Made by a program: the position numbers and the translations under genes. The notes beneath the pieces are model-generated. The model did no database searches. It saw only the letters and a program-made list of their open reading frames with translations, and was not told the DNA's origin. Positions 8,148 through 39,601 of a stretch of 64,000 nucleotides of DNA are shown in pieces (positions within the stretch are counted from its first letter, which is position 1; every line of letters starts with the position of its first letter). The stretch comes from Streptomyces griseiscabiei. GTDB taxonomy: Bacteria > Actinomycetota > Actinomycetes > Streptomycetales > Streptomycetaceae. The DNA lies in contig NZ_JAGJBZ010000004.1 of the NCBI RefSeq assembly GCF_020010925.1, positions 641,548 to 705,547 of the forward strand. Reading direction: 5' to 3'.

Positions 8148-9920
8148 TTACTCCTCTGCCCCGTTCCCCCGCTCTGCCTTCTCGTCCGCCTCCTTCTCGC
8201 ACTCCAGGGCCGTCTGCCGGGACGGCCCGCCGTACTGGGAGCTGATCCGGACGTTCCCCGGCTCGTGCACGGTCAGGCGGGTGAACTCCGTGAGGTCGCC
8301 GTCGGACTCGCGGTCGGCGGTGAGGCAGCCGTTGTCGGCCCAGAGCCAGGGGGAGTAGGCGACCCGGACGGTGACCTCGCCGGCCTTCGGCATGTGGACG
8401 ACGAGGTTGGCGCCGTCCGCGCTGACGACGGTGGCCGGCCGGTCGACCAGCGGGGTCGCGTTCTTCACCCGGTAGATCTTCCAGTTGGCGTCCTGCCAGA
8501 GCGGCTCCAGATAGTCCGGCCCGCTGGTCACCAGCGCGTGCTCCAGCTCGGCGGGCCCGTCCGGCTCGCCGTTGACGAGGACGACGAAGCCGACCGCCCA
8601 CTGCGACAGCCACGCCTTGTACGCGGACGGCGTGAACGCGCCCTCGGGCACCTCGGTCCCGCCGTGGCCCTCGTAGAAGAGCCGGCCGCGCTCGACGTCG
8701 GCCTGACGGTTCCAGCCGCGCGCCATGTTGATGTACGGCGCGAGGATGGCGGCCTCCCGGTGGTCGCGGGCCGGGACCACCTCGACGCGGGTCTTCCACG
8801 CGCCCAGCCGCTTCAGCTCCTTCACCACCCCGTCGGTCTTCACCGCCCACTCGGGGACCTTGGTGTTGGTGACGATGTCGGCGGTCGTCTTGCCGGTGAG
8901 CCAGGTCACGGACAGCACCAGGGCCACCGCGCCGGCCACCGTCCGCCGCCGGGGCGTGAACCAGGACAGCGGGAGCCGGTCCTCGGCCGTACGCGCCTCG
9001 CCCCGGTACAGACAGATCGCCAGGGCCGCCGCCGGGCCCGCCAGCTCCAGGAGGCGTTCGACGTTCGTGCCGATGGGGGTGGGGATGAGGTAGCAGAGGA
9101 CCACGCCGAGCGCGTAGATCGCGGCGCTCAGGCGGAGCACCCGCCAGGCGCTCGGCGCGACCAGCACCACCACCGCGCACAGCACGACCGGCGGCCATAT
9201 CCGGCTGAACGCCATGGGCTGCTCGCCCTCGAAGGGGAACAGCAGCGTGGTCACGGCGACCACGGTCACCGGCGGCGCGATCAGCGCCGCCGCCCGGCCC
9301 CACTCACGGCACAGCAGATACGCGGCGCCGACCACGAGGAGGAACAGCCCGGAGACGGGGCTCCCCAGCGTGGACAGCGTCGCGCACACCGCCGCCGCCG
9401 CGAGCTGCCGCCGGCCGCGCCCGCTCAGCACCGCCAGCAGGGCGCCCATCGCGAAGGCCGTGCCCAGCATGAACGTGGAGCGGCCCGACACCACCTGGCA
9501 CCACAGCGAGAACGTCGCCGCCAGCGCGACCGGCACCGGCGCACGTACACCCGTACGAGTGACGACCGCGCCGGCCAGCCAGGACGCGGAGAGCCCCGAC
9601 ACCAGCGTCACGGGGACGACGCCGAGCGCCGCCATCAGATACGGCGAGAGCACGCTGTAGTTCGCCGCGTGCAGCCCCCCGTACCAGAACAGGTTGACCG
9701 CGGAGTCCGGGTACGTCTTCGCGAACTCCGCCCACGCCACCTGGGCCGCCAGGTCGCCGCCGCCGGTCGCGAAGACCGCCCACCACACGAAATACAGCGG
9801 CAGGGCGCACAGGGCGGCCGTGAGAGGGACCCGGTGGCGCTGCCGCCACGGCTCGCGCGACGGCGACGGTTTGTCCGCACGCGAGACCGGTCGTCGTGGG
9901 GTCAGCTCGGCAAAGGCCAC
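8148..9920 (-). CDS. Polytopic membrane protein with extracytoplasmic C-terminal domain
   Basis: A 590-residue protein with a GTG start. A short basic cytoplasmic tail leads into a first helix near residue 33 and about ten further hydrophobic segments up to about 350. The last 230 residues are soluble and probably outside the cell. The topology (helix bundle, short loop with YPDS-x-VN-x-FWYGG near residue 70, large C-terminal domain) recalls GT-C glycosyltransferases, but I see no decisive catalytic motif. Automatic annotation may call such proteins MFS transporters, which the topology does not support. It is monocistronic, bounded by terminators on both sides. Confidence 0.75.
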   Translation of the reverse strand: MAFAELTPRRPVSRADKPSPSREPWRQRHRVPLTAALCALPLYFVWWAVFATGGGDLAAQVAWAEFAKTYPDSAVNLFWYGGLHAANYSVLSPYLMAALGVVPVTLVSGLSASWLAGAVVTRTGVRAPVPVALAATFSLWCQVVSGRSTFMLGTAFAMGALLAVLSGRGRRQLAAAAVCATLSTLGSPVSGLFLLVVGAAYLLCREWGRAAALIAPPVTVVAVTTLLFPFEGEQPMAFSRIWPPVVLCAVVVLVAPSAWRVLRLSAAIYALGVVLCYLIPTPIGTNVERLLELAGPAAALAICLYRGEARTAEDRLPLSWFTPRRRTVAGAVALVLSVTWLTGKTTADIVTNTKVPEWAVKTDGVVKELKRLGAWKTRVEVVPARDHREAAILAPYINMARGWNRQADVERGRLFYEGHGGTEVPEGAFTPSAYKAWLSQWAVGFVVLVNGEPDGPAELEHALVTSGPDYLEPLWQDANWKIYRVKNATPLVDRPATVVSADGANLVVHMPKAGEVTVRVAYSPWLWADNGCLTADRESDGDLTEFTRLTVHEPGNVRISSQYGGPSRQTALECEKEADEKAERGNGAEE

Positions 9921-10024
9921 TGCGGCTCGTCCGTTCCGTTTCGACTCGTGCGGGCGGGTGTTCCTCGTTTGTTGGTGTAGACGCTAATCACCCGCTGACA
10001 GTTGGCCGACAGCAGCCGTGCGAT

Positions 10025-10062
10025 CCGGCACGGCCGTAGGGAAACCCCTACGGCCGTGCCGG
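10025..10062. terminator. Intrinsic terminator hairpin (17-bp stem)
   Basis: A perfect 17-bp stem with an AAAC loop, just after the stop of the MerR-type gene at 10080 on the minus strand and about 100 bp upstream of the next minus-strand gene start. It separates the two transcripts. Confidence 0.85.
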
Positions 10063-10079
10063 TGCGCGCATCACACCGC

Positions 10080-10964
10080 TCAGGATGCGACCGGGAACGC
10101 CACGTCGCACACCGGGTCCTCGGGACCCGCCGCGTCCCAGTCCGCGAAGTAGATCTCGCGGCACGGGCCGGTGACCTCCAGGCCCCGCCCGGCGATCCAC
10201 CGCTCGACCGCCTCGAACGCCGCGAGGATCTGCGGATGTGCCACCTGCGCCTTGCTGATCCGGGTGTACACGAGCCGTCCCGCCGGCTCCACACGCACCC
10301 TCGTCTCCCAGGCCCGCCCGTGCTCCGCCGCCCACGCCCGCGCGGCGCCCTCGTCGGCCACCGGCACACACGCCTCGGCGGGCCCGTCGCTCTCCATGGA
10401 GACCTCGGAGTGGTACACGACGAACGGCGCGCCGGTGGTCCCGCCGCAGGCCGCCGCCCCCTCCTCCAGCCGCCCCAGCGACGCCCCGATCCACGCCGGC
10501 AGCTCGTCGGCGAGGGTGTGCCGTGACTGGGTCAGCAGCACCTGGGGGGCGACATCGACCGTTTCGACGGCGAAAGTCCCGTACGTCTCTTCCATGCCTG
10601 ACTCCGTATGCGTCAACCGTCCACGGAGGTAGGCGACCAGGGTCCGCTGGGACGCGAACCGCTCCTCGGCCCCGGCCCAGTACGCGGCCAGCGCCTCGGC
10701 CGCCCCGGCGCCGTCCCGCTCGCCGAGGTCCACGATCTCGGCGATCCGCGCGAGGGGCATGTCGAGCTGCCGCAACAGGGCCACCAGACGGGCACGTCCG
10801 GACTGCTCGGCCCGGTAGTACCGGTAGCCGTTCGCCTCGTCGACGTACGCCGGCGGGAGCAGTCCCAGCCGGTCGTACAGCCGCAGCGCCTTCGCCGACA
10901 GCCGCGCGCGGGCGGCGAAGGCACCGATGGTGAGCAGATCGTCGTCCATGTCCAGGGGGGTCAC
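10080..10964 (-). CDS. MerR family regulator with GyrI-like effector domain
   Basis: A 294-residue protein from the GTG at 10964, which has GGAGG eight bases upstream; the ATG five codons later lacks such a site. The N-terminal MerR helix-turn-helix is plain (LLTIGAFAARARLSAKALRL, then YDRLGLLPPAY and GYRYY). A helical linker follows to about residue 125. The C-terminal half resembles the GyrI/Rob small-molecule binding domain of BmrR- and TipA-like drug sensors. A MerR-type dyad lies immediately upstream, so the gene probably controls itself. No obvious target transporter is adjacent. Confidence 0.9.
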   Translation of the reverse strand: MTPLDMDDDLLTIGAFAARARLSAKALRLYDRLGLLPPAYVDEANGYRYYRAEQSGRARLVALLRQLDMPLARIAEIVDLGERDGAGAAEALAAYWAGAEERFASQRTLVAYLRGRLTHTESGMEETYGTFAVETVDVAPQVLLTQSRHTLADELPAWIGASLGRLEEGAAACGGTTGAPFVVYHSEVSMESDGPAEACVPVADEGAARAWAAEHGRAWETRVRVEPAGRLVYTRISKAQVAHPQILAAFEAVERWIAGRGLEVTGPCREIYFADWDAAGPEDPVCDVAFPVAS

Positions 10965-26952: not shown

Positions 26953-26995
26953 GTGCCCCCGGTAGGATTCGAACCTGCGACACCCGCTTTAGGAG
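26953..26995. other. Left attachment site (attachment repeat of tRNA-Arg 3' half)
   Basis: 43 bp that match 39528-39570 at 42 positions (T26963 versus C39538). The copy corresponds to tRNA-Arg(CCT) from the anticodon loop to the 3' end. The right-hand side continues into unrelated sequence, so only the partial tRNA is present here. This is the standard product of tyrosine-integrase insertion into a tRNA 3' end. Confidence 0.92.
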
Positions 26996-27475: not shown

Positions 27476-28075
27476 TTACTGACCTTGCTGGCGTGATGTC
27501 GTCAAGGTGAGGCCGGTTTCAGTGAGACATCCGTCGACGAGGTTGCTGCGGTACTGGATCTGGCGGAGGCCCTGGCGAAGGGTGCGCATCAGATGGTCGG
27601 GGTCGGTGAAGGCGGTGTTGGCCTGGCTGCTGCGTCGCAGCAGTGACCAGATGCCCTCGACGGGGTTGAGGTCCGGTGCATAGGCGGGCAGGAAGTAGCA
27701 GGTGATCCAGTCGTGGGTGTCGATGAACTCCCGCAGCCGGCGGTCCTTGTGCACGTTCAAGTTGTCCCAGACGAGCACGATCGGCGCGCCGAGCTGTTGG
27801 TGGGCGGCGGTCAGCAGGTCGCGGTAGTCGGTCCAGGTGAAGCTGCGTCTGCCGCCCCGCTTGTGGTCGGCGTGCCGCTTGGGCCGGTAGATCAGCCGTG
27901 AGCGCTCGCCCTCCTTGTAGCAGGTCAGAGCGGCGATGGAGAAGCGGCGCTGGGAGCGTCCCCGCACCCGGATGACGGGTGTGTGTCCGCGCCTGGCCCA
28001 GGTGCGGGCAGTGGGCGGCGTCATCGAGAACCCGGCCTCGTCTTCGAAGCAGAGCCAGGCCCCGAGCGCCGCCAT
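27476..28075 (-). CDS. IS630 family transposase, second frame (DDE catalytic part)
   Basis: A 199-residue frame with the DDE domain: FEDEAGF (first Asp), VLVWDNLNVHKD (second Asp) and YAPDLNPVEGIWSLLRR (Glu). The stop TAA at 27478-27476 uses the TA target dinucleotide plus the adjoining host T, so the stop codon was completed by the insertion site. It would be expressed as a frameshift fusion with the first frame. Confidence 0.88.
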   Translation of the reverse strand: MAALGAWLCFEDEAGFSMTPPTARTWARRGHTPVIRVRGRSQRRFSIAALTCYKEGERSRLIYRPKRHADHKRGGRRSFTWTDYRDLLTAAHQQLGAPIVLVWDNLNVHKDRRLREFIDTHDWITCYFLPAYAPDLNPVEGIWSLLRRSSQANTAFTDPDHLMRTLRQGLRQIQYRSNLVDGCLTETGLTLTTSRQQGQ

Positions 28076-28626
28076 AGCGTTTCCACCTGCGGCCAGGTCT
28101 CCTTCACCCAGCCGGTGACGGCTTCCTCGTCACGCTCGGTCGCGCGGCGGGCCGGCACCTGGTGGCTGAAGCCGTGCCGGTGCAGCATCTGCGCGATGGC
28201 CGACAGCGTCATGCTCTTGTGGAACCGGCGTCCGATCAGCGTCTTGATCCGCGAGAGCGTCCAGGTCTGGTCCGGCCAGCCGTGTGCGACCGGCCCCTTG
28301 GCCAGCTCCTGCTCGAGCACCTCAAACAACGCCTCGCTCAGCTTGGGCCTGGACGCCGGCCCCGCCGACTCCAGCGCTGACGTCCCGCCGTGCTCCCATG
28401 CCTGGCGCCATCGTTGTACCGACCGCACGCTGACACGTAACTCCTTGGCGACCGCGGCATTGTCGCGTCCCAGAGCGAATAACTCGGCCGCCCGCATCCG
28501 GATGCGCTCACGAAAGACCCGCCGCTCCGCGGTCAGCCCGCCCCCTTGCGGATACCTCATACAACCGGCCTACCGCGACAACCACCGCTTGTCAGCCCCC
28601 GCGACATCACCCCAGCAAGGTCAGTA
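27477..28626 (-). mobile_element. IS630-family insertion sequence
   Basis: About 1.15 kb bounded by inverted repeats: CTGACCTTGCTGG from 27479 and its complement ending at 28624, continuing as GTGATGTCG with one difference. TA dinucleotides flank both ends (27477-27478 and 28625-28626), the target duplication of IS630/Tc1-type elements. It carries two overlapping transposase frames on the minus strand. Both look intact. Confidence 0.88.
28021..28560 (-). CDS. IS630 family transposase, first frame (DNA-binding part)
   Basis: A 179-residue product containing a helix-turn-helix (AAELFALGRDNAAVAKELRV, SVRSVQRWRQAWEHGG) and a second winged helix domain (WTLSRIKTLIGRRFHKSMTL). It overlaps the second frame by about 55 bp near its end. 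In this family the full transposase is made by frameshifting from the first frame into the second. The last few residues (RRSGPGSASKTRPGSR) are the out-of-frame end past the likely slip site. Confidence 0.88.
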   Translation of the reverse strand: MRYPQGGGLTAERRVFRERIRMRAAELFALGRDNAAVAKELRVSVRSVQRWRQAWEHGGTSALESAGPASRPKLSEALFEVLEQELAKGPVAHGWPDQTWTLSRIKTLIGRRFHKSMTLSAIAQMLHRHGFSHQVPARRATERDEEAVTGWVKETWPQVETLWRRSGPGSASKTRPGSR

Positions 28627-28662
28627 GACACTCACTGCTCCCCCTGCGCGGGACCACCGTGC

Positions 28663-29133
28663 TCACCAGCACTCCATTGATCTCCCGACGTACTGACAGG
28701 TCGGGTCGTCGGGGTGGCCCCGCTCGTTGCCGCTGGCGCGCGACCACACGATCAGAACCAGCAGCGCGAGGAACCCGATCACGACGCCCTTGGCCCACCT
28801 CATGGACTCCTCATCGCGGACGCGCTGGATGAGGTCTTCGTGCTCCTGTTGGCGTCGTTCCGCAAGGGTGAAGCCGTCGTCGTCGGCAAACTCGTCGTTG
28901 GCGGATTCCTCGTCACTCGACAAGGAATCGAAGTGGACCGCCTCAAATTGTTCACGGCGGGCTTCGCGCGCCTCCCGTTGCGCTCGGACAGCGTCCGGTT
29001 CGGGGAAGGGGAACCGGCGGGACCAGTCACTCTTGTGACAGCTCGCGCAGCTCGAAACACCTTCTCCTTTGACGCGCATCAGGCGGCCGACGCCGTGACC
29101 ACAGTGTGGGCATGTGTGCTTGACCTCGGCCAT
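28663..29133 (-). CDS. Zinc-ribbon single-pass membrane protein
   Basis: A 156-residue protein. It begins with two cysteine pairs (CPHC at 8-11 and CASC at about 29-32), a zinc ribbon. A long charged, Arg/Glu-rich coiled-coil-like middle follows, then one transmembrane helix near residues 115-135 (VVIGFLALLVLIVW) and a short tail with two cysteines. The topology would place the zinc ribbon in the cytoplasm. It is inside the element between the IS and the ATPase operon. Function unknown. Confidence 0.75.
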   Translation of the reverse strand: MAEVKHTCPHCGHGVGRLMRVKGEGVSSCASCHKSDWSRRFPFPEPDAVRAQREAREARREQFEAVHFDSLSSDEESANDEFADDDGFTLAERRQQEHEDLIQRVRDEESMRWAKGVVIGFLALLVLIVWSRASGNERGHPDDPTCQYVGRSMECW

Positions 29134-29734: not shown

Positions 29735-29920
29735 GTGTCAAACCTTGGCCAACGGATGTTGGGTGTGATGAGTGAGGTATCGGCAGCGGCCGAGGCCCAT
29801 GCCCCCGATGCTGACGCGCTGACTTCGGATGAATTGGCACTCCTGAAACTGTTGGCAACGGAGCCGTTCGACTTGAGTCTTACCCTCAAGGAGTTGATGG
29901 CTGATGCACATCAGGATTGA
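29735..29920 (+). CDS. Small acidic protein, first gene of the ATPase operon
   Basis: About 61 residues from GTG 29735 (GGGGGG seven bases upstream); an ATG at 29768 is a shorter alternative. The product is acidic and helical (TSDELALLKLLATEPFDLSL) and could be a small partner subunit. Its end overlaps the start of the ATPase gene by 17 bp, which means tight coupling. Small middle components preceding SMC-like ATPases are known from ABC three-component systems; whether this is one is a guess. Confidence 0.55.
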   Translation: MSNLGQRMLGVMSEVSAAAEAHAPDADALTSDELALLKLLATEPFDLSLTLKELMADAHQD

Positions 29921-32291
29921 AACCGAACGCCGCAGAGGCCTTCGCATAATCGAGGAAATCCCTGACATCGAGCTTTGCAAGATTCAGGGATACAACGGTA
30001 TTGGCAAGACCAATGCAATCAAGCTGCTAGCATTGTGCGTTGGCGAAACACCCTTTCGCAGTGATTCTGCGGCGTGGCCGTCTTTCAGAGAGCAGCTCTT
30101 GGGTGGGAGCGTAGAGATCTCAGGCCTCCGCAACGGAGAAGAAATCAGATGGGATCTGACCCCGGAGCAGTGGCCGCTCGACCCTGCAGAGTCACTCAAT
30201 GAAGCGATCGGGTCCGTTTGGATCAATGGGAAGAAATCTAGCCACAACGATGTAAGGCAGATTCTTCGCGTATATCACATTCTAGCTGCAGACACGCCGC
30301 AGAATGTCCTGTCTGCGCGAATCCTGGAAGCGCAAAAAGAAATTCTGGGATGGACCACGGAGCGTCAGGCGCGCCTAAATGCCCTTGACGAATCAATCGA
30401 CACTGTTCGTGAGCTGATTGTCGATGCTGGACCGGAGAATTTCGCAGCAGAACTTGTGATCATGCGCGATTCCAGGCAACGGGCGGAGAAGATTGCAGGC
30501 GAGCTAGCAGAAGCTAGCCGCCGCATGAAGCTTCTCAAGCGGGCGGTTGAAGTAGCAGACCGGCTGATTCAGGTTCGAGGGCGTGGGCCGGAAATGGACG
30601 CGACACTCGCCGAACTTGCGGGGCGCCTTGCTGATCTCGATAGCCAAAAGGAATCGCTAGATCAGAAAATCGCGGATGCTAGTGCTCGGAAGCATCGCGA
30701 TGCAGAGGCCGAGAAAAAATTCAAAAACGCTCAGAATTACTTGGATCGACATGATCGATCCTTGCGAGCGGCACGTCGCTCACTGGAGAATGCTGCAGCG
30801 GGCGCAGGCATCGAGCCTCGGCGTGACGTCATAGAGCGGGCACAACGCGAAGCCAGCGAACGCCTCGGCGCGTTGACGAGCCAACTACCGAGTGTGCATT
30901 CGGCCCCACTGATCCTTGAAGTTCTCGACGACCTGATTCGTCGTCTGACTGCAGCAGAGGATGAGGAACTTGGCTCTGCCACCCTGCTGACGAACTCAGA
31001 AGGTACGGAGATCTACTCCGTGTCGTCTTTGAATCGCTCTTTGTCGGCAGATCGTGAAAAGCTTCGGAAACGCACTCCGTCTGCTGACGCAGCTAAGCTC
31101 AATGAGGATATTTCGGACACGCGTAATCTCCTCGATAATCTGACGCAAACTTCCGATGCCCTTGGCGCGTTCGAGCTGGCTGAGGCCGGTTTGGTAAAGG
31201 CCAAGAAACGTCTGAAAGATGCGGTCGACAGTCTTCCTGAGCAGACGGCGCGGACGCTAGACGAACTCATGGAGCACAGAAATAAGCTAGATAAGGATTC
31301 GGCACAGGTTCAATCGAATCACGCTAGGCTTTCCCACGCGCGCGAGTTGCTCGGTGGAGGGCTCGATGAGCAGTCTCTGAATGCGGAACTCGTGCAACTC
31401 TGTCAAACCATGGATGTTAAGGCCTCACGCGTTAAAGGTCACTTAATGACAGAAGCGGCGAAGCTAGAGGAGATCGCTCGCAGCGATACACAGGCATCTC
31501 AGCAAGCCGAACGTGCAAGCGTAGCAGTTGAGAGACGTTCATCAGCTATGAAGAACGTAATCATTCAACTTACGCAGGATGCGAAGAATCGTTGGCTTGT
31601 TGAAGCCGTGCCACGCCTTGCTGACCTCGCCGACGCTGATGAGGAAAGTCAAGCTGCCGCTCTGATGACTGCTTTGAATAATGTGGAGAAGGCAAGGAAT
31701 AAACTCCACCGCATCGATGGGCTGGTCAGAGGTACTGGACGAGCACTTGGCGAGCTTCATAACAGCATGGACAGCAGGGGTGGACTCCCGGCGGGAGTCG
31801 AGCCAGTCGACCACTCTGTGCGTCTTTGGCTGGGCGAGGATGTCCGGAAGTGGTTCGATGATGAACTCGTCCGAAAGGCTCTTTTCGGCGGCGGCAGCGA
31901 TATACGCCTCGACCCGACCGACATGACGATTTGCTGGATTAATGAAGACGGTGAAGAGGAACGTCGTCCGCTCTCGGCCTTCTCGAGCGGGCAACAAGTA
32001 TTCGCCTATACACAGGCACAGGTTGCCAAGCTTGATCGTGAGGGCCTCCCAGCAGCCAACAGGCTGATCGCTCTCGATGAGTTCGGATCCTTCTTGGACT
32101 GGGATCGCATGTCTAGCCTGGTTGACTTTCTACAGTCTCGCGAACGCGGGACGACGAAGGATCAAGTACTCGTGATTCTTCCTTTGGAAGAAAACGCGCC
32201 CCGCCGGCGCGGTGGCGAAGACAGTGTGGTCCAGGATCAGATCCGCAGTCTGGAACAGCGTGGCTACTTTGCGGAGGAGCTTCGCACGTGA
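29904..32291 (+). CDS. SMC/RecN-like coiled-coil ATPase
   Basis: A 795-residue protein with split ABC-type ATPase halves. Walker A is GYNGIGKT at residues 29-36. At the C-terminus lie a signature-like segment FSSGQQ (693-698) and Walker B LIALDEFG with Asp725/Glu726. Between them about 500 residues are heptad-rich and charged, predicted coiled coil, as in SMC, Rad50/SbcC and RecN. I see no zinc hook (CxxC). It probably binds DNA ends or foreign DNA and signals to partners by ATP hydrolysis. AAGGAG precedes the start. The gene's GTGA overlap with the next gene implies a complex. Confidence 0.85.
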   Translation: MHIRIETERRRGLRIIEEIPDIELCKIQGYNGIGKTNAIKLLALCVGETPFRSDSAAWPSFREQLLGGSVEISGLRNGEEIRWDLTPEQWPLDPAESLNEAIGSVWINGKKSSHNDVRQILRVYHILAADTPQNVLSARILEAQKEILGWTTERQARLNALDESIDTVRELIVDAGPENFAAELVIMRDSRQRAEKIAGELAEASRRMKLLKRAVEVADRLIQVRGRGPEMDATLAELAGRLADLDSQKESLDQKIADASARKHRDAEAEKKFKNAQNYLDRHDRSLRAARRSLENAAAGAGIEPRRDVIERAQREASERLGALTSQLPSVHSAPLILEVLDDLIRRLTAAEDEELGSATLLTNSEGTEIYSVSSLNRSLSADREKLRKRTPSADAAKLNEDISDTRNLLDNLTQTSDALGAFELAEAGLVKAKKRLKDAVDSLPEQTARTLDELMEHRNKLDKDSAQVQSNHARLSHARELLGGGLDEQSLNAELVQLCQTMDVKASRVKGHLMTEAAKLEEIARSDTQASQQAERASVAVERRSSAMKNVIIQLTQDAKNRWLVEAVPRLADLADADEESQAAALMTALNNVEKARNKLHRIDGLVRGTGRALGELHNSMDSRGGLPAGVEPVDHSVRLWLGEDVRKWFDDELVRKALFGGGSDIRLDPTDMTICWINEDGEEERRPLSAFSSGQQVFAYTQAQVAKLDREGLPAANRLIALDEFGSFLDWDRMSSLVDFLQSRERGTTKDQVLVILPLEENAPRRRGGEDSVVQDQIRSLEQRGYFAEELRT

Positions 32292-33292
32292 ATGAATCTG
32301 GGCATCGCACAGTTTTTGGCGTTCCTGCGGTTCTTACTGGATCAGAGATTTCTGTGCTCGTGGAAGATCTCACGACACTATGGAAGCTGACCTACAGTAG
32401 CCCGCCTAAGGATGTGGAGTCGGACCTTGAATTGTGCCGGAAGTTCTTTGACCCGCTGGCGCGGGGTGGCACGCTCCGTGAGCGGCTAGCCTCTCTTGAG
32501 AAAACACCTATGAAGATCAGGAGATCTTCATATGCGCAACCACTCGTAATCGACGTGGGATCCGACTCATGCATTGTCGGAGTCGAGGCGCGACTATTTC
32601 TAGACCTATTGCAAGACGCCGCGGGAGAAGACTATTTGGTCCTTTCTCCGGTGTCGATTGCAGCTATGGAGAGACGCGCACTTGATAAGTATCGCGAGTG
32701 GTCTACAGCCCGACTAAATCAGGTCATTGCGCTGCGTTCCGGCAAGGCCATTGAGGTCATGCAGGCGATCTCGGTAGGTCTAGTCATTGCGCTCCTGGTT
32801 AATCGATCCGACTCGCCAGAACGAGCCATTCCAAAGTTGTCTACGGACTCGCCAGAAGGGCGCCGCCTCAACTCAGCCATCTACAGCGGGGCAGAGCGGT
32901 TCGCTGAGGTGGTAATGCCTAATAAGAGCTCACGCTCTGCTGGCGAGAGAAGCCTCAAAGGGGGCTATGGCCTCAGCGAAGCCAGACGTCGACTGGCTCA
33001 TCGCCTGGTGACTGAAAAGAGATCAAGCGGCGAGTTCGTCCATGTAGCCGCGGAATACAAAGGCGAGGTCATTCTCTACCTCGCGGCGGATCTGGCGCGA
33101 AGGTCTTCGTTGGCCGAAGAAGCTTTGACAGAGGCCTTTGATGAACTGATCGCAGGATTTCGCGAAACCGGGGACGCTCTTGCTCATGGGTCTCTTATTT
33201 TTGAGCGCCCTGCAGACACTCGCCGACTGAAGACACAATTCATTTCCGCGTTCGCAGAAGCTCGGGCTCGCAACGAACGCGAAAGTGAATAA
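32288..33292 (+). CDS. Unknown protein coupled to the SMC-like ATPase
   Basis: A 334-residue protein from GTG 32288, overlapping the ATPase stop as GTGA. It has no signal peptide or sure membrane helix (one moderately hydrophobic helix near residue 160, AISVGLVIALLV). The C-terminal third is helical (EALTEAFDELIAGFRETGD). I recognise no family and no nuclease motif. Coupling to the ATPase suggests it is the effector or accessory subunit of the same complex. Codon use is less GC-biased than in flanking host genes. Confidence 0.75.
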   Translation: MNESGHRTVFGVPAVLTGSEISVLVEDLTTLWKLTYSSPPKDVESDLELCRKFFDPLARGGTLRERLASLEKTPMKIRRSSYAQPLVIDVGSDSCIVGVEARLFLDLLQDAAGEDYLVLSPVSIAAMERRALDKYREWSTARLNQVIALRSGKAIEVMQAISVGLVIALLVNRSDSPERAIPKLSTDSPEGRRLNSAIYSGAERFAEVVMPNKSSRSAGERSLKGGYGLSEARRRLAHRLVTEKRSSGEFVHVAAEYKGEVILYLAADLARRSSLAEEALTEAFDELIAGFRETGDALAHGSLIFERPADTRRLKTQFISAFAEARARNERESE

Positions 33293-33297
33293 ATTGT

Positions 33298-34695
33298 CTA
33301 GCTTTTACGGAAGAGGATAAGCCTTTCCGAAAGCTCGACGTCATGCCGCACATTGTTGCTTTGCCATCGCTGGCCCCGCTTGCGGAGGGTTAGGTCCTTC
33401 TCGAATGAGAATCCGAGACCTTGGGCGATGTCGCCAATTAGACGCGGAGTGTCGATGTATACTCCGTAAGGTGCACTGTCGCCGACGAGCCATACGACAG
33501 GGGATCCAGGCTTCAAAGCGGTGGCCATATTTTCGAGCACTTGAGCAATGGCCAAGAAGTAATCGGGGAGGACTCGGTCGTACTCTTTACCTCTGGGACG
33601 CTTATTGCGCTCGGCCAAAAGTTTAGAGGTTATAGCAAGGACTGATTCAGCGATCTCTCCGTACTCTTCGAGCCTTTCAGCGGCGATGCGTGCTGCAGAT
33701 ACGCTGCTTTGCTGTGTTGTTGCCGTCAGCATTTCTGAGCGAACCTCTGTGCACATTTCAGCCCAGCTAGAGATGTCCCCCCAGAAATAGAGCTCGAGAC
33801 GGGTTGCGTCCGCGTAGTCGAAGTTGTTGAGATACGGCGGAGATGAGACGCAACCGTGAGCGCTCTCAGGCCCCAAACTTTCCCATGCGATTTTTCCGCG
33901 CGAGTCGCCCTGAACAACTTGGTAGGAAAGATGGTTGGGGCTATCGACTGTTTCACGAATGTCTTGTTCCATCCATTCTGCGCGTTGGACGAAGCGCGCC
34001 AATGGATCGCGATGGATAGGCTTTCGTTCTGTTCCTGGTCTTTGATAGGGCCAGCCGACGCGTGCTGAGGCAACATCGCGGAGGGTTCCCAAGAGTGCCC
34101 ATTTAACGTGGAGATTCCACGTCCCACCTGCTCCGGCGCGAATCAGGTCGCGAAGGGCTACGAGTTGCCCGAGGACGCTGCTACTGAAACAGCGCGCTAC
34201 GAGGTCTGGTTCCTGGTCGACTCGGCGCTCCGCTGAAGAGCTCTGCTGGGCTGCTGCGACAGCTAGTGTTCGGGCTACTTCACCGAGGGTCCTATCTGTG
34301 GCGCGCGGCCGACCCTGCAGTTTCAACCGGCCCAGTTCCGCGATTAGTGGGTGGGCTTCAACGCCAAAGAATGAGTGGCCCGCCTGGCGAGCTGCCGTTC
34401 CTGTTACGGCTGAGCCGGCGAATGGATCGAGTATCAAACTCTCTGGATCAAGCTCAAGATGAGAGAGGAGAGTGGCGACGTAGTCAGAGGCGAAGCCAGC
34501 CGGGTACCGGAACCAGCGATCGAATGGCTCGCTCCTGCTCGTACCGTGTGCTCTTCCGCGGCCTGATGAGGGGGTCGGAAGAGACTGAGGCTTCCAGGAG
34601 GCATCGAGAGTGAGGTCGGCAAGGAGCTGCTGTCCAGCTTGAGTCTCGTTAGTCAACACGTTTCCATTGCACCACGGCGCCGTGCCCACTGACAC
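33298..34695 (-). CDS. DNA methyltransferase (N4-cytosine/N6-adenine type)
   Basis: A 465-residue protein. Motif I is DPFAGSAVTG (residues 90-99), close to the DPFxGSGTT of SAM-binding DNA methylases, and motif IV is SSPPY (284-288), the SPPY form usual in N4-cytosine enzymes. A long, possibly target-recognition, segment lies between them, and the C-terminus ends with a conserved-looking GDSAPYGVYIDTPRLIGDIA region. It follows the kinase gene by 21 bp on the same strand, so they are probably one transcript. The start is GTG 34695 or GTG 34689; both have AGGA close by. No restriction nuclease is adjacent. Confidence 0.87.
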   Translation of the reverse strand: MSVGTAPWCNGNVLTNETQAGQQLLADLTLDASWKPQSLPTPSSGRGRAHGTSRSEPFDRWFRYPAGFASDYVATLLSHLELDPESLILDPFAGSAVTGTAARQAGHSFFGVEAHPLIAELGRLKLQGRPRATDRTLGEVARTLAVAAAQQSSSAERRVDQEPDLVARCFSSSVLGQLVALRDLIRAGAGGTWNLHVKWALLGTLRDVASARVGWPYQRPGTERKPIHRDPLARFVQRAEWMEQDIRETVDSPNHLSYQVVQGDSRGKIAWESLGPESAHGCVSSPPYLNNFDYADATRLELYFWGDISSWAEMCTEVRSEMLTATTQQSSVSAARIAAERLEEYGEIAESVLAITSKLLAERNKRPRGKEYDRVLPDYFLAIAQVLENMATALKPGSPVVWLVGDSAPYGVYIDTPRLIGDIAQGLGFSFEKDLTLRKRGQRWQSNNVRHDVELSERLILFRKS

Positions 34696-34716
34696 AGTTC
34701 CTGAGAGATACGGACG

Positions 34717-36042
34717 TCACGGATTAATCAAAGTTGCCAGGATTGCGCTTCGTGGCGTCCAGCCGAGAGCCCCGTAGTAGGCCAGCACTGTCGAGCCCGA
34801 GCCGGTCAGCGCCCGAGATATGGCCCGTTCCGCCTGCCCCTCTAGCTCGTCAAGCCACTCGGTCGTCCGCCTGGTTTGCTCCAAATACCCGCAATGTGCG
34901 TCGGCGGCAAAGAATGAGGGTGCGGCATCCTGGGCGAGTCCGATTTGTTTGGCACTAATCAGAGTTCGAAGGATCGTGTGTATGAAAGAGAGAGGCGTCC
35001 CCATGTAGTCCCTATCGCGATCTTCCCATGGGCTCTCACTGAGGTGTCGCGCCATCGTGATTGCCAATTCGCTGGCGCGGTCTGGGTTTTTTCTCGTCCA
35101 CTCGGCCACCAGGGAAGAGGTGAGTGGTGCCAGGTTATCGAAAAATATTGCGTGACTATTTGGGTAAGCCATTGCCAGTGTCACCAGGGTTTCAATCTCC
35201 GTGGTTTTCCCGAGCAGGATATCCTCCGTTATCTTCTCGGCTCTCGCCTCTACTGGTTCATCGCGAGACTCGGGAACTCTCGCAAGCAATTTACGCAGGG
35301 CGGGCATGTCTTTCACCCTGCGAGCGATTTCCTCTTGAGTGCATTCCCAAATGAAAGGTCGCCAGTGGAGGTAGGTTCCATCAGGTAGCAGTGGTCGTCC
35401 TGCCTTAGGTCGTTGACCTGTGAGAAACCATGCAGCCACACGGCCCAGACTGTAGACGTCCGCTGCCGGGGTTGCTTCACGAGGATTTTCGCTGAGTTCT
35501 GGTGCTGCGTACCCGTCTGTTCCTATTTCTTGATTTGTTCGGGTCAGCGGAGAAGAATTGGGAGAGTAAGGGCGCGTAACCATTCCCCAGTCGGCGACGA
35601 CCCAACGCCTCTTTACGGTTCCTGATTCGGGAAGTGCGAGGATGTTGCCCGGCGCAATATCTCTATGGACAAGTTTCCTTTTGTGTGCTATTTCGAGAGC
35701 CTCGGCGAGATTCAGTAGTATTGAAACCAGGTTCTCTTCATCTAGCTCGCCTCTGAGTTTTGTGAGGCTGCCATCCGCGATTGGCATTGTGTACCACTCG
35801 TAGCCGGGATCGTGATCGCGAATGGGCATGATGTTGGGGTGGTGTAGTGAGGTCTGCGCTTCGATCTCCCGCCGAATCCTCTCTTTTGCTTGAGGGACTG
35901 GGAGTGGTCGTTTAAGAGCGACCTCTTCTTTTGATCCTCTGTGCCACGCCCGTCGCACGTCTGCGTATCCGCCTGGCCCGAGAGTCTTCCCGTCGAGTCG
36001 GTAGAGGGATCGCGGGTCTACGGTTGTCTCATCAGCCCCCAT
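34717..36042 (-). CDS. Serine/threonine protein kinase, cytoplasmic
   Basis: A 441-residue Hanks-type kinase: glycine loop LGPGGYADV (21-29), Lys44 in VALK, HRD at 126-128 with Asn133, DWG (151-153) in place of DFG, and APE at 180-182. There is no transmembrane segment or PASTA domain, unlike PknB-type kinases. The C-terminal 180 residues are helical and unassigned. A soluble kinase next to a methyltransferase recalls PglW/PglX of phage growth limitation (BREX type 2), which was described in Streptomyces, but PglY and PglZ are not visible here. Confidence 0.9.
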   Translation of the reverse strand: MGADETTVDPRSLYRLDGKTLGPGGYADVRRAWHRGSKEEVALKRPLPVPQAKERIRREIEAQTSLHHPNIMPIRDHDPGYEWYTMPIADGSLTKLRGELDEENLVSILLNLAEALEIAHKRKLVHRDIAPGNILALPESGTVKRRWVVADWGMVTRPYSPNSSPLTRTNQEIGTDGYAAPELSENPREATPAADVYSLGRVAAWFLTGQRPKAGRPLLPDGTYLHWRPFIWECTQEEIARRVKDMPALRKLLARVPESRDEPVEARAEKITEDILLGKTTEIETLVTLAMAYPNSHAIFFDNLAPLTSSLVAEWTRKNPDRASELAITMARHLSESPWEDRDRDYMGTPLSFIHTILRTLISAKQIGLAQDAAPSFFAADAHCGYLEQTRRTTEWLDELEGQAERAISRALTGSGSTVLAYYGALGWTPRSAILATLINP

Positions 36043-37021: not shown

Positions 37022-38075
37022 GTGGCCGCCGTAGAGCGGCTTGAAGTCAGCGGCGGCAAGGGCGTCCCCGAACACGTCGCCACCCACCCGCGCGTCTTCG
37101 CCACCTTCACCGCACCGAGCTTCGGCCCGGTCCACAACCGCCCTTCCAGCGGGCGCCCCTGCCGCTGCGGCACCCGCCACGACCAGGACGACGCCGTACT
37201 CGGTACCTCGCTCGACCCGGACACGTACGACTACGAAGCGGCCGTGCTCTGGAACGCGCACGCCGGTCCGCTCTGGCGACGCTTCTCCACGTACCTGCGC
37301 CGCGAGGTCGCCAAGCGCGCGGGCCTGTCACAACGCTGCTTTCGCGACCACGCCCGCGTCTCCTTCGCCAAGGTCGCCGAGTACCAGAAGCGCGGCGCCG
37401 TCCACTTCCACGCCGTCATCCGCATCGACGGCCCCACCGGCGGTGACACCCCACCCCCAGCCTGGGCAACGGCCGAACTGCTCGCCGATGCCATCGAGAC
37501 GGCAGCAGCCAAGGTCCGCGTGGAGGGCCCGGCCGTCGACGGACGCACCCACACCTTCACCTTCGGCCGACAACTCGACGTCCGCACCATCCGCTCCGCC
37601 GACTTCAACGACGGCCAGGAACTCACCGAACGCGCCGTCGCCGCGTACATCGCCAAGTACGCCACCAAGGGCGCCGAGACCGCTACGGGAGCTCTCGACC
37701 GGCCGCTGAAGTTCGCCGCCGAGCTGGCCCAGCTCGACATCAGCGACCACGCCCGCCGACTCATCCGAACCGCCTGGTTCCTCGGCGCACGCAAGGATCT
37801 CGAACACCTCCGCCTACGCGCCTGGGCCCACATGCTCGGCTTCCGCGGCCACTTCTCCACCAAATCCCGCCGCTACTCCACCACCCTCGGCGCCCTCCGC
37901 GACGCCCGCGCCGAATGGCGCCGAGCACAAGCCGCAGCCAACACACCCGACACCGGGCCCGAGACGACGTACGTCCTCGCGCACTGGGTCTTCGCCGGAA
38001 CCGGTCTCTCCGACACCGAAGCCTGGCTTGCCGAATCCCTCGCACCGGCCCCCGGAACGGAAGGGGAACCCACCC
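37022..38075 (+). pseudogene. RepSA-like replication initiator, 5'-truncated and without a stop of its own
   Basis: The reading frame enters abruptly near 37050 with VATHPRVFATFTAPSFGPVH, which is internal in pSAM2-type Rep proteins; about 150 N-terminal residues are missing. The remaining part keeps VHFHAVIRIDG (HUH-like rolling-circle motif) and AYIAKYATKG (the catalytic tyrosine region). The frame has no stop before the excisionase and runs on, in phase, into the integrase gene, giving an open frame of 801 codons. Its normal 3' end has therefore been lost. It is unlikely to support replication. Confidence 0.8.
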
Positions 38076-38288
38076 GTGGCTTACCGCTACCTCACCGTGG
38101 CGCAGGTGGCCGAACTCCTCGGCACCACGGAACGCTTCCCGCGCCGACTGATCGCCGAGCGACACATCGCGTTCGTCAAGGTCGGCCGACACGTCCGCAT
38201 CCCAGAGAGCGCGGTGGATGCCTTCATCGACGCCAACACGGTGCAGCCGATCGGCTACCGGCGCGGCTCTCTGCGGAGGGTCGCCTGA
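38076..38288 (+). CDS. xis: Excisionase-like HTH protein
   Basis: A 70-residue protein from GTG 38076 with AAGGGGA upstream. It is a MerR/Xis-type winged helix (YLTVAQVAELLGTT, RLIAERHIAFVKVGRHVRIP) of the kind encoded directly before integrases in pSAM2-like elements. Its TGA overlaps the ATG of the integrase by one base (TGATG). It should direct the integrase to excision. Confidence 0.88.
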   Translation: MAYRYLTVAQVAELLGTTERFPRRLIAERHIAFVKVGRHVRIPESAVDAFIDANTVQPIGYRRGSLRRVA

Positions 38289-39427
38289 TGGCCAACAAGA
38301 AAGGGCGGCGTAGAAGCTTCGGATCGGTCCGACAGCTTCCGTCTGGCCGTTGGCAGGTCCGCTACCGTGACCCGGAGACGGGCCAGTTGCGTCCGGCTGA
38401 GGAGACGTACCCGACCAAGACTGATGCTCAAGCCGCTCTCACGCACATCGAGTCCGACATCACGCGCGGGCAGTGGTCGGACCCGGACGCGTCGGCGGTG
38501 AGCTTCGAGGAGTACGCAACCGCGTGGCTACGGGACCGGAAGCTCGCCGACTGCACCCGAGAGCGGAACGAGTCGGTGGTGCGGCTGCACATCCTGCCCA
38601 CCTTCGGGGCCGGATCGGTGGCCGACGTGACGACGGCTCGGGTTCGCAGCTGGCGCGGCAGGCTCCTCTCGGCCGGCATCGGTGAGCCGACCGTGGTCAA
38701 GGCTTACCAACTCCCGAGGGCCCTGATGAACACGGCCGTGGACGATGAGCTGATCCGGCGCAACCCATGCCGGGTCAAAGGGGCGGACCGCTACGACGTG
38801 CCCGAGCGGCCGGTCCTCACGGTGCCCGAGGTCTTCGCCGTTGCCGACTCCATCGCGCCGCGCTACCGGCTGCTCGTGCTCCTGGCCGCCTTCACCACGC
38901 TGCGGTTCGGGGAGCTGGCGGCCCTTCGGCGTCGGGACATCGACCAAGAGGCGCTGACCGTCACTGTTCGCCGGGCTCAGGCTGAGTTGCAGAGCGGTCG
39001 GCTCTTCGACAAGGGCCCGAAGTCTGCGGCTGGGGTGCGTACCGTCTCCTTCCCGGCCGAGCTGCTCGACGGCGTCACGCGTCACCTGGAGCAGTTCGCT
39101 GCTCCTGGCCGTGATGGGCACGTCTTCGTCGGGCCGCAGGGCGGGCAGTTGCGGCGGAGCAACTTCCGTGACGACTGGGTCAAGGCCCGGAAGGCGGCAG
39201 GCGTCACGTCTGAACTGCACTTCCACGATCTTCGGCACACCGGCAACACCCTGGCCTCGACCGCCGGTGCCAGTACCCGAGAGCTGATGACCCGCATGGG
39301 GCACAGCAGCTCGCGCGCCGCGCTGATCTATCAGCACATGACCAGCGACCGTGACCGGGCCATCGCCGATCGGCTCGGGGCCATGATCCGCGAGAACGGG
39401 GGAGAGGCCACCACCGGCCAGGAGTGA
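38288..39427 (+). CDS. int: Tyrosine site-specific integrase
   Basis: A 379-residue phage-type integrase. An N-terminal AP2-like arm-binding domain and SAM-like core-binding domain (about 70-165) precede the catalytic domain with Arg206 (TTLRFGEL), His313 and Arg316 (HFHDLRH), His339 (MGHSS) and Tyr348 (ALIYQH). All catalytic residues are present, so excision may still be possible. It ends 100 bp from the attachment site in tRNA-Arg. Confidence 0.96.
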   Translation: MANKKGRRRSFGSVRQLPSGRWQVRYRDPETGQLRPAEETYPTKTDAQAALTHIESDITRGQWSDPDASAVSFEEYATAWLRDRKLADCTRERNESVVRLHILPTFGAGSVADVTTARVRSWRGRLLSAGIGEPTVVKAYQLPRALMNTAVDDELIRRNPCRVKGADRYDVPERPVLTVPEVFAVADSIAPRYRLLVLLAAFTTLRFGELAALRRRDIDQEALTVTVRRAQAELQSGRLFDKGPKSAAGVRTVSFPAELLDGVTRHLEQFAAPGRDGHVFVGPQGGQLRRSNFRDDWVKARKAAGVTSELHFHDLRHTGNTLASTAGASTRELMTRMGHSSSRAALIYQHMTSDRDRAIADRLGAMIRENGGEATTGQE

Positions 39428-39527: not shown

Positions 39528-39570
39528 GTGCCCCCGGCAGGATTCGAACCTGCGACACCCGCTTTAGGAG
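39528..39570. other. Right attachment site within the intact tRNA-Arg gene
   Basis: The 43-bp partner of 26953-26995. The tRNA sequence continues intact past 39570 to 39601, so insertion has left a functional tRNA at this end. Confidence 0.92.
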
Positions 39571-39601
39571 AGCGGTGCTCTATCCCCTGAGCTACGAAGG
39601 C
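39529..39601 (-). tRNA. tRNA-Arg (anticodon CCT)
   Basis: A 73-nt tRNA on the minus strand, 5' end GCCTTCG at 39601. The anticodon arm CCGCT-CTCCTAA-AGCGG contains CCT, and the T arm GCAGG-TTCGAAT-CCTGC is standard. The acceptor stem pairs GCCTTCG with CGGGGGC using two G-T pairs. CCA is not encoded. It reads the AGG arginine codon, and its 3' half is the integration target of the element. Confidence 0.96.

What the first reader, a model, noticed from the sequence alone, without database searches (positions are those of the whole stretch)
29735..36042. Candidate anti-phage module: SMC-like ATPase operon converging on a Ser/Thr kinase and DNA methyltransferase
Five genes of lower GC than the surroundings sit in a mobile element: a small acidic protein, an SMC/RecN-like ATPase with intact Walker A and B, an unknown 334-residue protein, a DNA methyltransferase and a soluble Hanks kinase with a DWG motif. 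Overlapping starts (17 bp, then GTGA) tie the first three. Kinase plus methyltransferase plus ATPase is the parts list of methylation-guided defences such as Pgl/BREX type 2 and MADS. However, PglZ, PglY, BrxC and any recognisable nuclease are absent, so this would be a distinct or reduced system. That the module is defensive is inferred from composition and location.
Basis: partly seen in the sequence, partly recalled or inferred. Interest (0 to 1): 0.9.

Follow-up and report, generated by a model that had tools for sequence, protein, structure and literature searches.

The report
Methylase-SMC defence module, swappable effector
A mobile DNA element in a soil bacterium carries a conserved five-gene set that looks like an undescribed anti-virus system: a DNA-marking enzyme, a DNA-scanning motor with two helper proteins, and a protein kinase that a related gene cluster replaces with a different predicted killer enzyme.

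Summary
Five intact genes (small acidic protein > SMC-like ATPase > 334-aa protein; converging on kinase > DNA methyltransferase) lie in a 12.6-kb AICE bounded by a 43-bp tRNA-Arg repeat. The two halves belong together: all 8 independent kinase-type loci examined (Streptomyces, Micromonospora, Actinoplanes; found through the 334-aa gene) hold all five in the same order, and in 392 Streptomyces genomes the close forms of the 334-aa protein, methyltransferase and kinase occur in the same 3. No named system matches in PADLOC (2023), NCBIfam or Pfam.

The key new fact is a ninth locus, from another family of the class. It carries the same core (methyltransferase, ATPase, 334-like protein, a candidate small protein) in one direction, but with a SIR2-domain protein instead of the kinase. 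An exchangeable last component marks it as the likely effector. Relatives of the kinase elsewhere are often fused to AbiJ, XhoI-like or Cap4 nuclease domains.

Best reading: methylation-guided, effector-swapping (abortive-type) immunity, working like Lamassu with a self-marking methylase, but not a Lamassu, BREX, MADS or Wadjet member. Antiphage activity, methylation guidance and the trigger are inferred. New variant of a known kind. The swap rests on one locus.

The parts
26953..26995 (.). left attachment repeat (43 bp, 97.7% identical to the tRNA-Arg 3' part)
29735..29920 (+). small acidic protein, 61 aa (GTG start), first gene of the left half
   Evidence: counterpart in all 7 other kinase-type loci (tblastn in 5, read from the frame in 2); start set by alignment
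29904..32291 (+). SMC/Rad50-type ABC ATPase, 795 aa; coiled coil with a small beta-hairpin at the apex, no conserved zinc hook
32288..33292 (+). 334-aa partner protein without a family match; mostly helical, confident model (pLDDT 92), helix-hairpin-helix region 225-270 (possibly winged-helix-like); weak likeness to the MukF N-domain
33298..34695 (-). DNA methyltransferase of the N6/N4 type (motif I DPFAGS, then SPPY), relative of type II R-M methylases
34717..36042 (-). Hanks-type protein kinase, 441 aa, with a C-terminal region of about 200 aa; proposed effector
37022..39427 (+). RepSA and tyrosine integrase in one open frame (element maintenance, not part of the defence module)
39528..39601 (-). 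tRNA-Arg (CCT), attachment site of the element

Best explanation
The module is a horizontally moving immune system. The methyltransferase marks a DNA sequence in the host (self). The SMC-like ATPase, with the small protein and the 334-aa protein as clamp or adaptor subunits, loads on DNA and scans it. When it meets DNA of the wrong state (most likely unmethylated or otherwise foreign phage or plasmid DNA), ATP-driven rearrangement releases or activates the last component. Here that component is a Ser/Thr kinase that phosphorylates host or phage proteins and stops the infection; in the related locus it is a SIR2 enzyme that would deplete NAD. Shown here: gene content, co-inheritance, intact catalytic motifs, mobile location, effector replacement (one locus). 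Inferred: that it acts against phages, that methylation is the self mark, that the three-protein complex is the sensor, and that the kinase is the effector.
For: All five genes in 8 of 8 kinase-type loci. Close forms of p334, MTase and kinase confined to the same 3 of 392 congeners. Distance matrices of the four large proteins correlate at r = 0.97-0.99 over 8 loci. Locus L052: MTase 53%, small ORF in the equivalent position, ATPase (hhalign E 4e-60), 334-like (prob. 98.9%, E 9.9e-18), then a SIR2 protein (PF13289, E 1.9e-7) starting on the last base of the 334-like gene, and no kinase by tblastn in the 19.5 kb. Kinase relatives fused to AbiJ_NTD3 (5 of 12 scanned), XhoI (2 of 12) and Cap4 (1 of 4 plasmid ones scanned), that last one beside a complete LmuA-LmuC-LmuB set; another on a plasmid about 3 kb from PglW. 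MTase family paired with a REase in the two R-M loci examined; no such enzyme among the module proteins. ATPase fold of the SMC/Rad50 class, tied with JetC and LmuB. Carried on an AICE here, with AICE-type genes at L002, L005 and L012, beside a TOTE conflict gene at L007. AICEs of a Streptomyces population carry predicted R-M and abortive-infection cargo (PMC9513070, passages).
Against: No phage or methylome data. The effector swap rests on one locus. The small protein of L052 is not significantly like the family profile (228 of 2000 shuffles score as high); pairwise only L003's stands out (0 of 300 shuffles reach it), the other 7 do not. The 334-aa protein has no convincing fold match, so its role is a guess. 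In 7 of the 12 scanned kinase relatives the kinase is fused to a domain known from nucleases or abortive infection, so the kinase could be a regulator or sensor rather than the effector. The MTase target and product are unknown; that SPPY favours N4-cytosine is recalled knowledge.
Confidence: 0.5

Rival explanations
1. Element-stabilising (addiction) module: the methylase protects host sites and the ATPase-effector half kills cells that lose the element, or acts against competing AICEs and plasmids. It works like selfish R-M rather than like phage defence.
For: Sits inside an AICE, with FtsK-type transfer genes near 3 of the 7 other loci (10 chosen neighbour proteins scanned); methylase of an R-M family; rare and scattered, 3 of 392 genomes.
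Against: Exchange of the kinase for SIR2 (L052) and kinase relatives fused to AbiJ, Cap4 or XhoI domains are typical of antiphage systems; tblastn found no RepSA-integrase relative in the 19.5 kb of L052. The two uses are not exclusive.
Confidence: 0.2
2. SMC-type DNA-shape or DNA-end sensor (Wadjet- or Lamassu-like anti-plasmid or anti-phage system) in which the methylase is not the self mark but a regulator, or protects the host from a nuclease activity not recognised here.
Against: The methylase is the best conserved of the three core proteins between the kinase and SIR2 types (53% against 22-24%), which suggests that its job is central; weak fold matches of this size are common for helical proteins (note).
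Confidence: 0.2
3. Two independent cassettes (small-ATPase-334 and kinase-MTase) that happen to lie side by side.
For: They are convergent, so not one transcript, in the kinase-type loci; only 11 of 38 MTase contigs of rank 61-120 (6 kb or more) share a contig length with the 334-aa/ATPase lists, so more distant MTases may stand elsewhere.
Against: Together in 8 of 8 loci, co-inherited, and in L052 MTase, ATPase and 334-like gene run in one direction.
Confidence: 0.04
4. Reduced BREX type 2/Pgl or MADS system.
For: Shared parts list of kinase, methylase and ATPase; kinase domain matches MAD6 (E 3.6e-32) and PglW (2.2e-17).
Against: Only the generic kinase domain matches: MAD6 84.5 bits against a cut-off of 460, PglW 61.5 against 990. 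PglZ, PglX and BrxC are not among the matches listed for the module proteins; one marginal partial PglZ hit lies on another contig (25.5 bits, cut-off 25).
Confidence: 0.04

Closest known systems
Lamassu / ABC-3C (LmuA-LmuC-LmuB)
   Same: SMC/Rad50-like ATPase, a small partner, and an exchangeable effector, SIR2 among the known ones (PMC10586767, passages)
   Different: Has a DNA methyltransferase and a 334-aa protein; no LmuA or LmuC among the matches listed and only marginal LmuB matches (a true LmuB gives E 2e-81); ATPase keeps the catalytic Glu that LmuB generally replaces by Gln
CxC-type ABC ATPase-DndE systems with cytosine methylases (Rakesh, Aravind, Krishnan; PMC10853773, section 16 and passages)
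   Same: Coiled-coil ABC ATPase, a small protein, in part an N4-type methylase, modification proposed as self mark
   Different: No conserved cysteine hook (36 of 58 homologues lack any Cys in the apex region, 0 of 58 have CxxC); no HKD-helicase nuclease; kinase or SIR2 instead
Type II restriction-modification
   Same: Methyltransferase of the same family as R-M pairs in G266 and on an Erwinia plasmid
   Different: No restriction enzyme recognised in the locus; an ATPase complex and a kinase or SIR2 protein stand in its place
BREX type 2 / Pgl and MADS
   Same: Combine kinase, methylase and ATPase
   Different: PglZ and most other components not recognised in the module; kinase far below the family cut-offs
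Wadjet (JetABCD)
   Same: SMC-like ATPase; 334-aa model has a weak MukF-like part
   Different: Shorter coiled coil, no JetA/B/D match, has methylase and kinase

Membership tests
SMC/Rad50/OLD-class ABC ATPases | Walker A, ABC signature, Walker B with Glu, split head joined by a coiled coil | tested here: met
   Pfam AAA_21 and SMC_N matches are below their cut-offs
Lamassu / ABC-3C | ATPase matches LmuB models over its length | tested here: not met
   best LmuB E 0.0087, residues 234-520 only; L052 ATPase E 2.8e-5, residues 272-699; genuine LmuB control E 2e-81 over 3-607
Lamassu / ABC-3C | LmuA effector and LmuC middle component | tested here: not met
   no LmuA or LmuC family among the matches listed for the five proteins (for MTase and kinase the best 25 of 34 are shown) nor for the SIR2 and 334-like proteins of L052
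Lamassu / ABC-3C | works like it: exchangeable effector on an SMC-like core | tested here: met
   kinase in 8 loci, SIR2 in 1; one replacement only
BREX type 2 / Pgl | PglZ in the locus | tested here: not met
   elsewhere in the genome one marginal partial hit
BREX type 2 / Pgl | PglW-type kinase | tested here: not met
   61.5 bits against cut-off 990
MADS | MAD6-type kinase above the curated cut-off, other MAD components present | tested here: not met
   84.5 against 460 bits, no other MAD model among the NCBIfam matches; PADLOC mad2 E 1e-4 over 58 residues of the MTase and mad3 E 6e-4 over part of the L052 ATPase, where a true LmuB scores 6e-5
Wadjet | JetC over its length plus JetA, JetB, JetD | tested here: not met
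   only partial JetC matches, E 0.035 or weaker, L052 ATPase E 5.7e-4 over residues 30-70; fold likeness to JetC is shared with other SMC-class heads
Type II R-M | methyltransferase of an R-M family | tested here: met
   PDLC03306, E 3.4e-47, the family of two MTases that stand next to a REase_II
Type II R-M | cognate restriction enzyme | tested here: inconclusive
   none among the matches of the module proteins; own-genome search for PDLC03525 empty, but its control rang nowhere
CxC/DndD-DndE systems | conserved cysteine (zinc) hook at the apex | tested here: not met
   36 of 58 homologues lack Cys in residues 230-440; 0 of 58 have CxxC
CxC/DndD-DndE systems | DndE partner with two ribbon-helix-helix domains | tested here: inconclusive
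   no Pfam match for the small or 334-aa protein
SMC-kleisin complexes | 334-aa protein is a kleisin or KITE subunit | tested here: inconclusive
   weak structural rows for MukF and ScpB, no sequence support
Antiphage defence system | reduces plating of a phage | not testable with these tools
   needs a bench test

The most novel reading that the evidence does not exclude
A class of immunity that could be called restriction without a nuclease: a methylase borrowed from R-M writes the self mark, an SMC-like motor with a new 334-aa partner reads it, and the answer is not DNA cutting but a plug-in signalling or toxic enzyme (protein kinase or SIR2 NADase), making the methylation state of DNA the trigger of abortive infection.
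Probability: 0.3. Interest if true: 0.88.

Novelty: new variant of a known kind. Interest (0 to 1): 0.76.

Why it matters
If true, it joins two immune logics that have been kept apart: methylation-based self/non-self marking (R-M, BREX) and SMC-like sensing with exchangeable abortive effectors (Lamassu). It would give a small genetic system in which to ask how an SMC-like motor reads DNA modification, and what a Hanks kinase phosphorylates to stop a phage, a question still open for Pgl and MADS (recalled). It also provides a protein family (about 330 aa, no Pfam match at E up to 1) as a search handle for further variants.

Tried and rejected
Rejected: reduced BREX/Pgl or MADS (family cut-offs not met); two unrelated cassettes; Rad50-type zinc hook.

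Led nowhere: search of viral contigs with the 334-aa alignment, the ATPase alignment, the L052 ATPase and the MTase (no relatives); plasmids with the 334-aa protein, the ATPase and their L052 forms (none); phages with the ATPase (none; the other proteins were not tried on phages); Foldseek with the 334-aa model against PDB and viral models (nothing at E up to 0.001); PDB sequence search with its profile (best E 0.43); PDB sequence search with the SIR2 protein (none). MTase relatives on plasmids of Rhizobium, Leptolyngbya, Cryobacterium and Burkholderia (about 24% identity) were fetched; the annotated ones (Cryobacterium, Leptolyngbya) show other neighbourhoods, and the unannotated Rhizobium and Burkholderia ones were not analysed further. 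The 21-genome search of the genus of G870 found only G870 itself. The kinase ORF script stopped with an error after 12 of the 27 loci given; only those 12 were scanned for domains. Promoter scan: one site, fewer than in shuffles (mean 2.3); terminator-like sites 11 against a mean of 5.4, not pursued. In the literature library no paper describing this gene set turned up in nine searches (a tenth was on AICEs), seen as listings. Five papers were read in part: PMC12839542 (passages), PMC10853773 (passages; section 16), PMC10586767 (passages), PMC12926258 (passages, nothing useful), PMC9513070 (passages). The paper that classifies ABC ATPases of conflict systems (PMC7544218) is not held, so an earlier mention there cannot be excluded. 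DefenseFinder models were not available; PADLOC is of 2023; preprints are not held.
Full report
WHAT IS THERE. The window is part of an unnamed 10.6-Mb genome (G000:C4:641548-705547). It is filed in the same genus as G382, whose contig appears to be the Streptomyces luteolifulvus contig of L006, so it is a Streptomyces. Between 29735 and 36042 lie five genes of 55-58% GC in surroundings of about 70%. Left half, plus strand: a 61-aa acidic protein (GTG 29735 to 29920), a 795-aa ATPase overlapping it by 17 bp, and a 334-aa protein overlapping that by 4 bp. Right half, minus strand: a 441-aa protein kinase and, 21 bp after it, a 465-aa DNA methyltransferase; the two halves end 5 bp apart. The start of the small gene is set by alignment with its counterparts.

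MOBILE ELEMENT. A tRNA-Arg gene at 39528-39601 has a 43-bp copy of its 3' part (97.7%, E 5e-17) at 26953-26995. Between them lie the module, a RepSA-integrase frame (RepSA E 6e-121, phage integrase E 2e-18) and IS remnants: an AICE-type element of 12.6 kb of which the module is half. No transfer (FtsK) gene was seen among the ORFs of the element that were scanned; not every ORF was scanned. AICEs of a Streptomyces population are reported to carry predicted R-M and abortive-infection cargo (PMC9513070, passages).

CONSERVATION. The 334-aa protein has 113 homologues at E up to 0.001 (29-96% identity, the named ones mostly actinobacteria and one Chloroflexota) and the ATPase 59; in both searches only about 8000 candidates were scored. 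A genome scan with the 334-aa alignment gave six loci (L002-L007), and the genus scan added G056 (L012) and G382, which appears to be the same contig as L006. In all 7 independent loci the ATPase, the MTase and the kinase sit beside the 334-aa gene in the same order and orientation. The small protein is found by tblastn in 5 of the 7 and by reading the frame upstream of the ATPase in the other two, L003 and L007. With the window this makes 8 of 8; the loci were found through the 334-aa gene, so that gene is present by construction.

CO-OCCURRENCE. In one and the same sample of 392 congeneric genomes the 334-aa family occurs in 3. The MTase occurs at E below 1e-100 in the same 3; 2 more genomes hold weaker relatives. 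The kinase occurs at E below 1e-100 in the same 3, while 32 others hold kinases of 28-48% identity at E up to 1e-25. Leaving out the window's genome, hitting the same 2 of 391 by chance has odds of 1 in 76,245 (my arithmetic). Equal length stands for same contig here, some short ones will agree by chance, and the lists are truncated and clustered. Distance matrices of ATPase, 334-aa protein, MTase and kinase over the 8 loci correlate at r 0.966-0.989, reached by 0 or 1 of 5000 permutations; shared species history contributes to that.

A VARIANT WITH ANOTHER EFFECTOR. A class-wide sample of 394 genomes gave 3 with the MTase at E up to 1e-30: the window's, G056 and G870, a 3.46-Mb genome of another family. 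Its locus L052 reads in one direction: MTase 8895-10328 (53% identical over 446 columns), a 57-aa frame 10394-10567, an ATPase of about 795 aa (hhalign E 4e-60 over 759 columns), a 307-aa protein homologous to the 334-aa one (prob. 98.9%, E 9.9e-18) and, starting on its last base, a 526-aa protein with a SIR2_2 domain (E 1.9e-7; PADLOC SIR2 E 2.9e-4) that shows GAGAS, NFDR and KLHGS segments (the reading of these as SIR2 motifs is recalled). tblastn with the kinase found nothing in the 19.5 kb. The small frame is not significantly like the family profile (228 of 2000 shuffles score as high); pairwise it stands out only against L003 (0 of 300 shuffles) and against none of the other seven, so it is a candidate only. 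The ATPase of L052 has a 35% full-length relative, P0172, so its subfamily is not confined to one genome. In short, a core of methylase, ATPase and 334-type protein (and probably the small one) carries either a kinase or a SIR2 protein. Exchange of the last component on a constant core is the signature of an effector, as in Lamassu (PMC10586767, passages). It has been seen once here.

THE KINASE. Glycine-rich loop, beta-3 Lys, HRD...N and DWG are kept in 8 of 8. Outside the module, relatives over about 400 residues are mostly parts of larger proteins. Of 12 scanned (of 27 loci that the kinase search gave outside the three module genomes), 5 carry AbiJ_NTD3, 2 a XhoI-type endonuclease domain and 5 nothing recognised besides the kinase, four of those with a frame open at the upstream end; of the 2 also run against PADLOC, one has a PtuA-like N-terminal match. 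Of 4 plasmid relatives scanned (230 plasmid records match the kinase), 1 carries Cap4_nuclease and lies beside a complete LmuA-LmuC-LmuB set; another lies about 3 kb from PglW. The kinase family is thus a repeated component of conflict proteins. That fits an effector, but also a regulator.

THE METHYLTRANSFERASE. Motif I (DPFAGS/DPFTGS) precedes SPPY in 8 of 8. It matches PADLOC family PDLC03306. Two relatives of that family, in G266 (33%) and on an Erwinia aphidicola plasmid (29%), each stand next to a protein matching REase_II PDLC03525 (E 1e-171 and 1e-56). So the module uses a methylase of a type II R-M family, without such an endonuclease among its proteins. A search of the window's genome for that endonuclease was empty but uncontrolled.

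HOW IT MOST LIKELY WORKS. (1) The methylase marks host DNA [motifs shown, activity inferred]. (2) Small protein, ATPase and 334-aa protein form a DNA-loading sensor [gene overlap and co-inheritance shown, complex inferred]. (3) Foreign DNA without the mark, or in a processed state, changes the sensor's ATP cycle [inferred]. (4) The last component is switched on: kinase here, SIR2 in L052 [replacement shown once, activation inferred]. (5) Phosphorylation or NAD loss stops phage growth, probably at the cost of the cell [inferred from SIR2 in other systems, recalled]. My estimate that it is an immune or inter-element conflict system is about 0.8; that methylation guides it as described, about 0.5.

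COMPARISON AND NOVELTY. No named system is matched. It works like Lamassu with a self-marking methylase, or like R-M with a signalling enzyme in place of the nuclease. It fails defining tests of Lamassu, BREX type 2, MADS and Wadjet (membership table). The nearest published composition found is the CxC ABC ATPase-DndE system with cytosine methylases (PMC10853773, section 16), which differs in hook, nuclease and effector. Nine literature searches returned no description of the set (listed under Tried and rejected); the ABC-ATPase classification paper that might mention it is not held. I rate it a new variant of a known kind.

Noticed in passing
window 37022-39427: RepSA and integrase read as one open frame of 801 aa; the stretch between them looks like an excisionase gene out of frame (my reading), and the RepSA match lacks its first 80 positions, so the element's replication part may be decaying.
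   Followed up: partly
window 27476-29133: IS630-type (DDE_3, HTH) and IS1595-type transposase remnants between the left attachment repeat and the module.
   Followed up: no
L007:1113-3524: Actinoplanes locus: a TOTE-type primase-helicase conflict protein about 4 kb from the module.
   Followed up: no
L061:6107-12170 (Streptomyces sp. CA-256286 plasmid): A protein kinase fused to a Cap4 nuclease domain, convergent with a complete LmuA-LmuC-LmuB set: possibly a kinase-bearing Lamassu accessory.
   Followed up: partly
L053:7914-14148 (Cryobacterium plasmid pA28BH1): Two adjacent methylases, a hypothetical protein, an AAA ATPase and another hypothetical protein beside TniB/TniQ genes: another unnamed methylase-ATPase cluster.
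   Followed up: no
L021, L024, L028, L030, L037; L025, L026: Streptomyces proteins that join AbiJ_NTD3 (5) or a XhoI-like endonuclease domain (2) to a Hanks kinase homologous to the module kinase beyond the catalytic domain: a candidate single-protein defence family.
   Followed up: partly
L052:5996-8371: PIF1-like helicase frame just upstream of the SIR2-type module.
   Followed up: no
G000:C5:47047-48246: A second kinase of the same type (33% identity) in the window's own genome.
   Followed up: no
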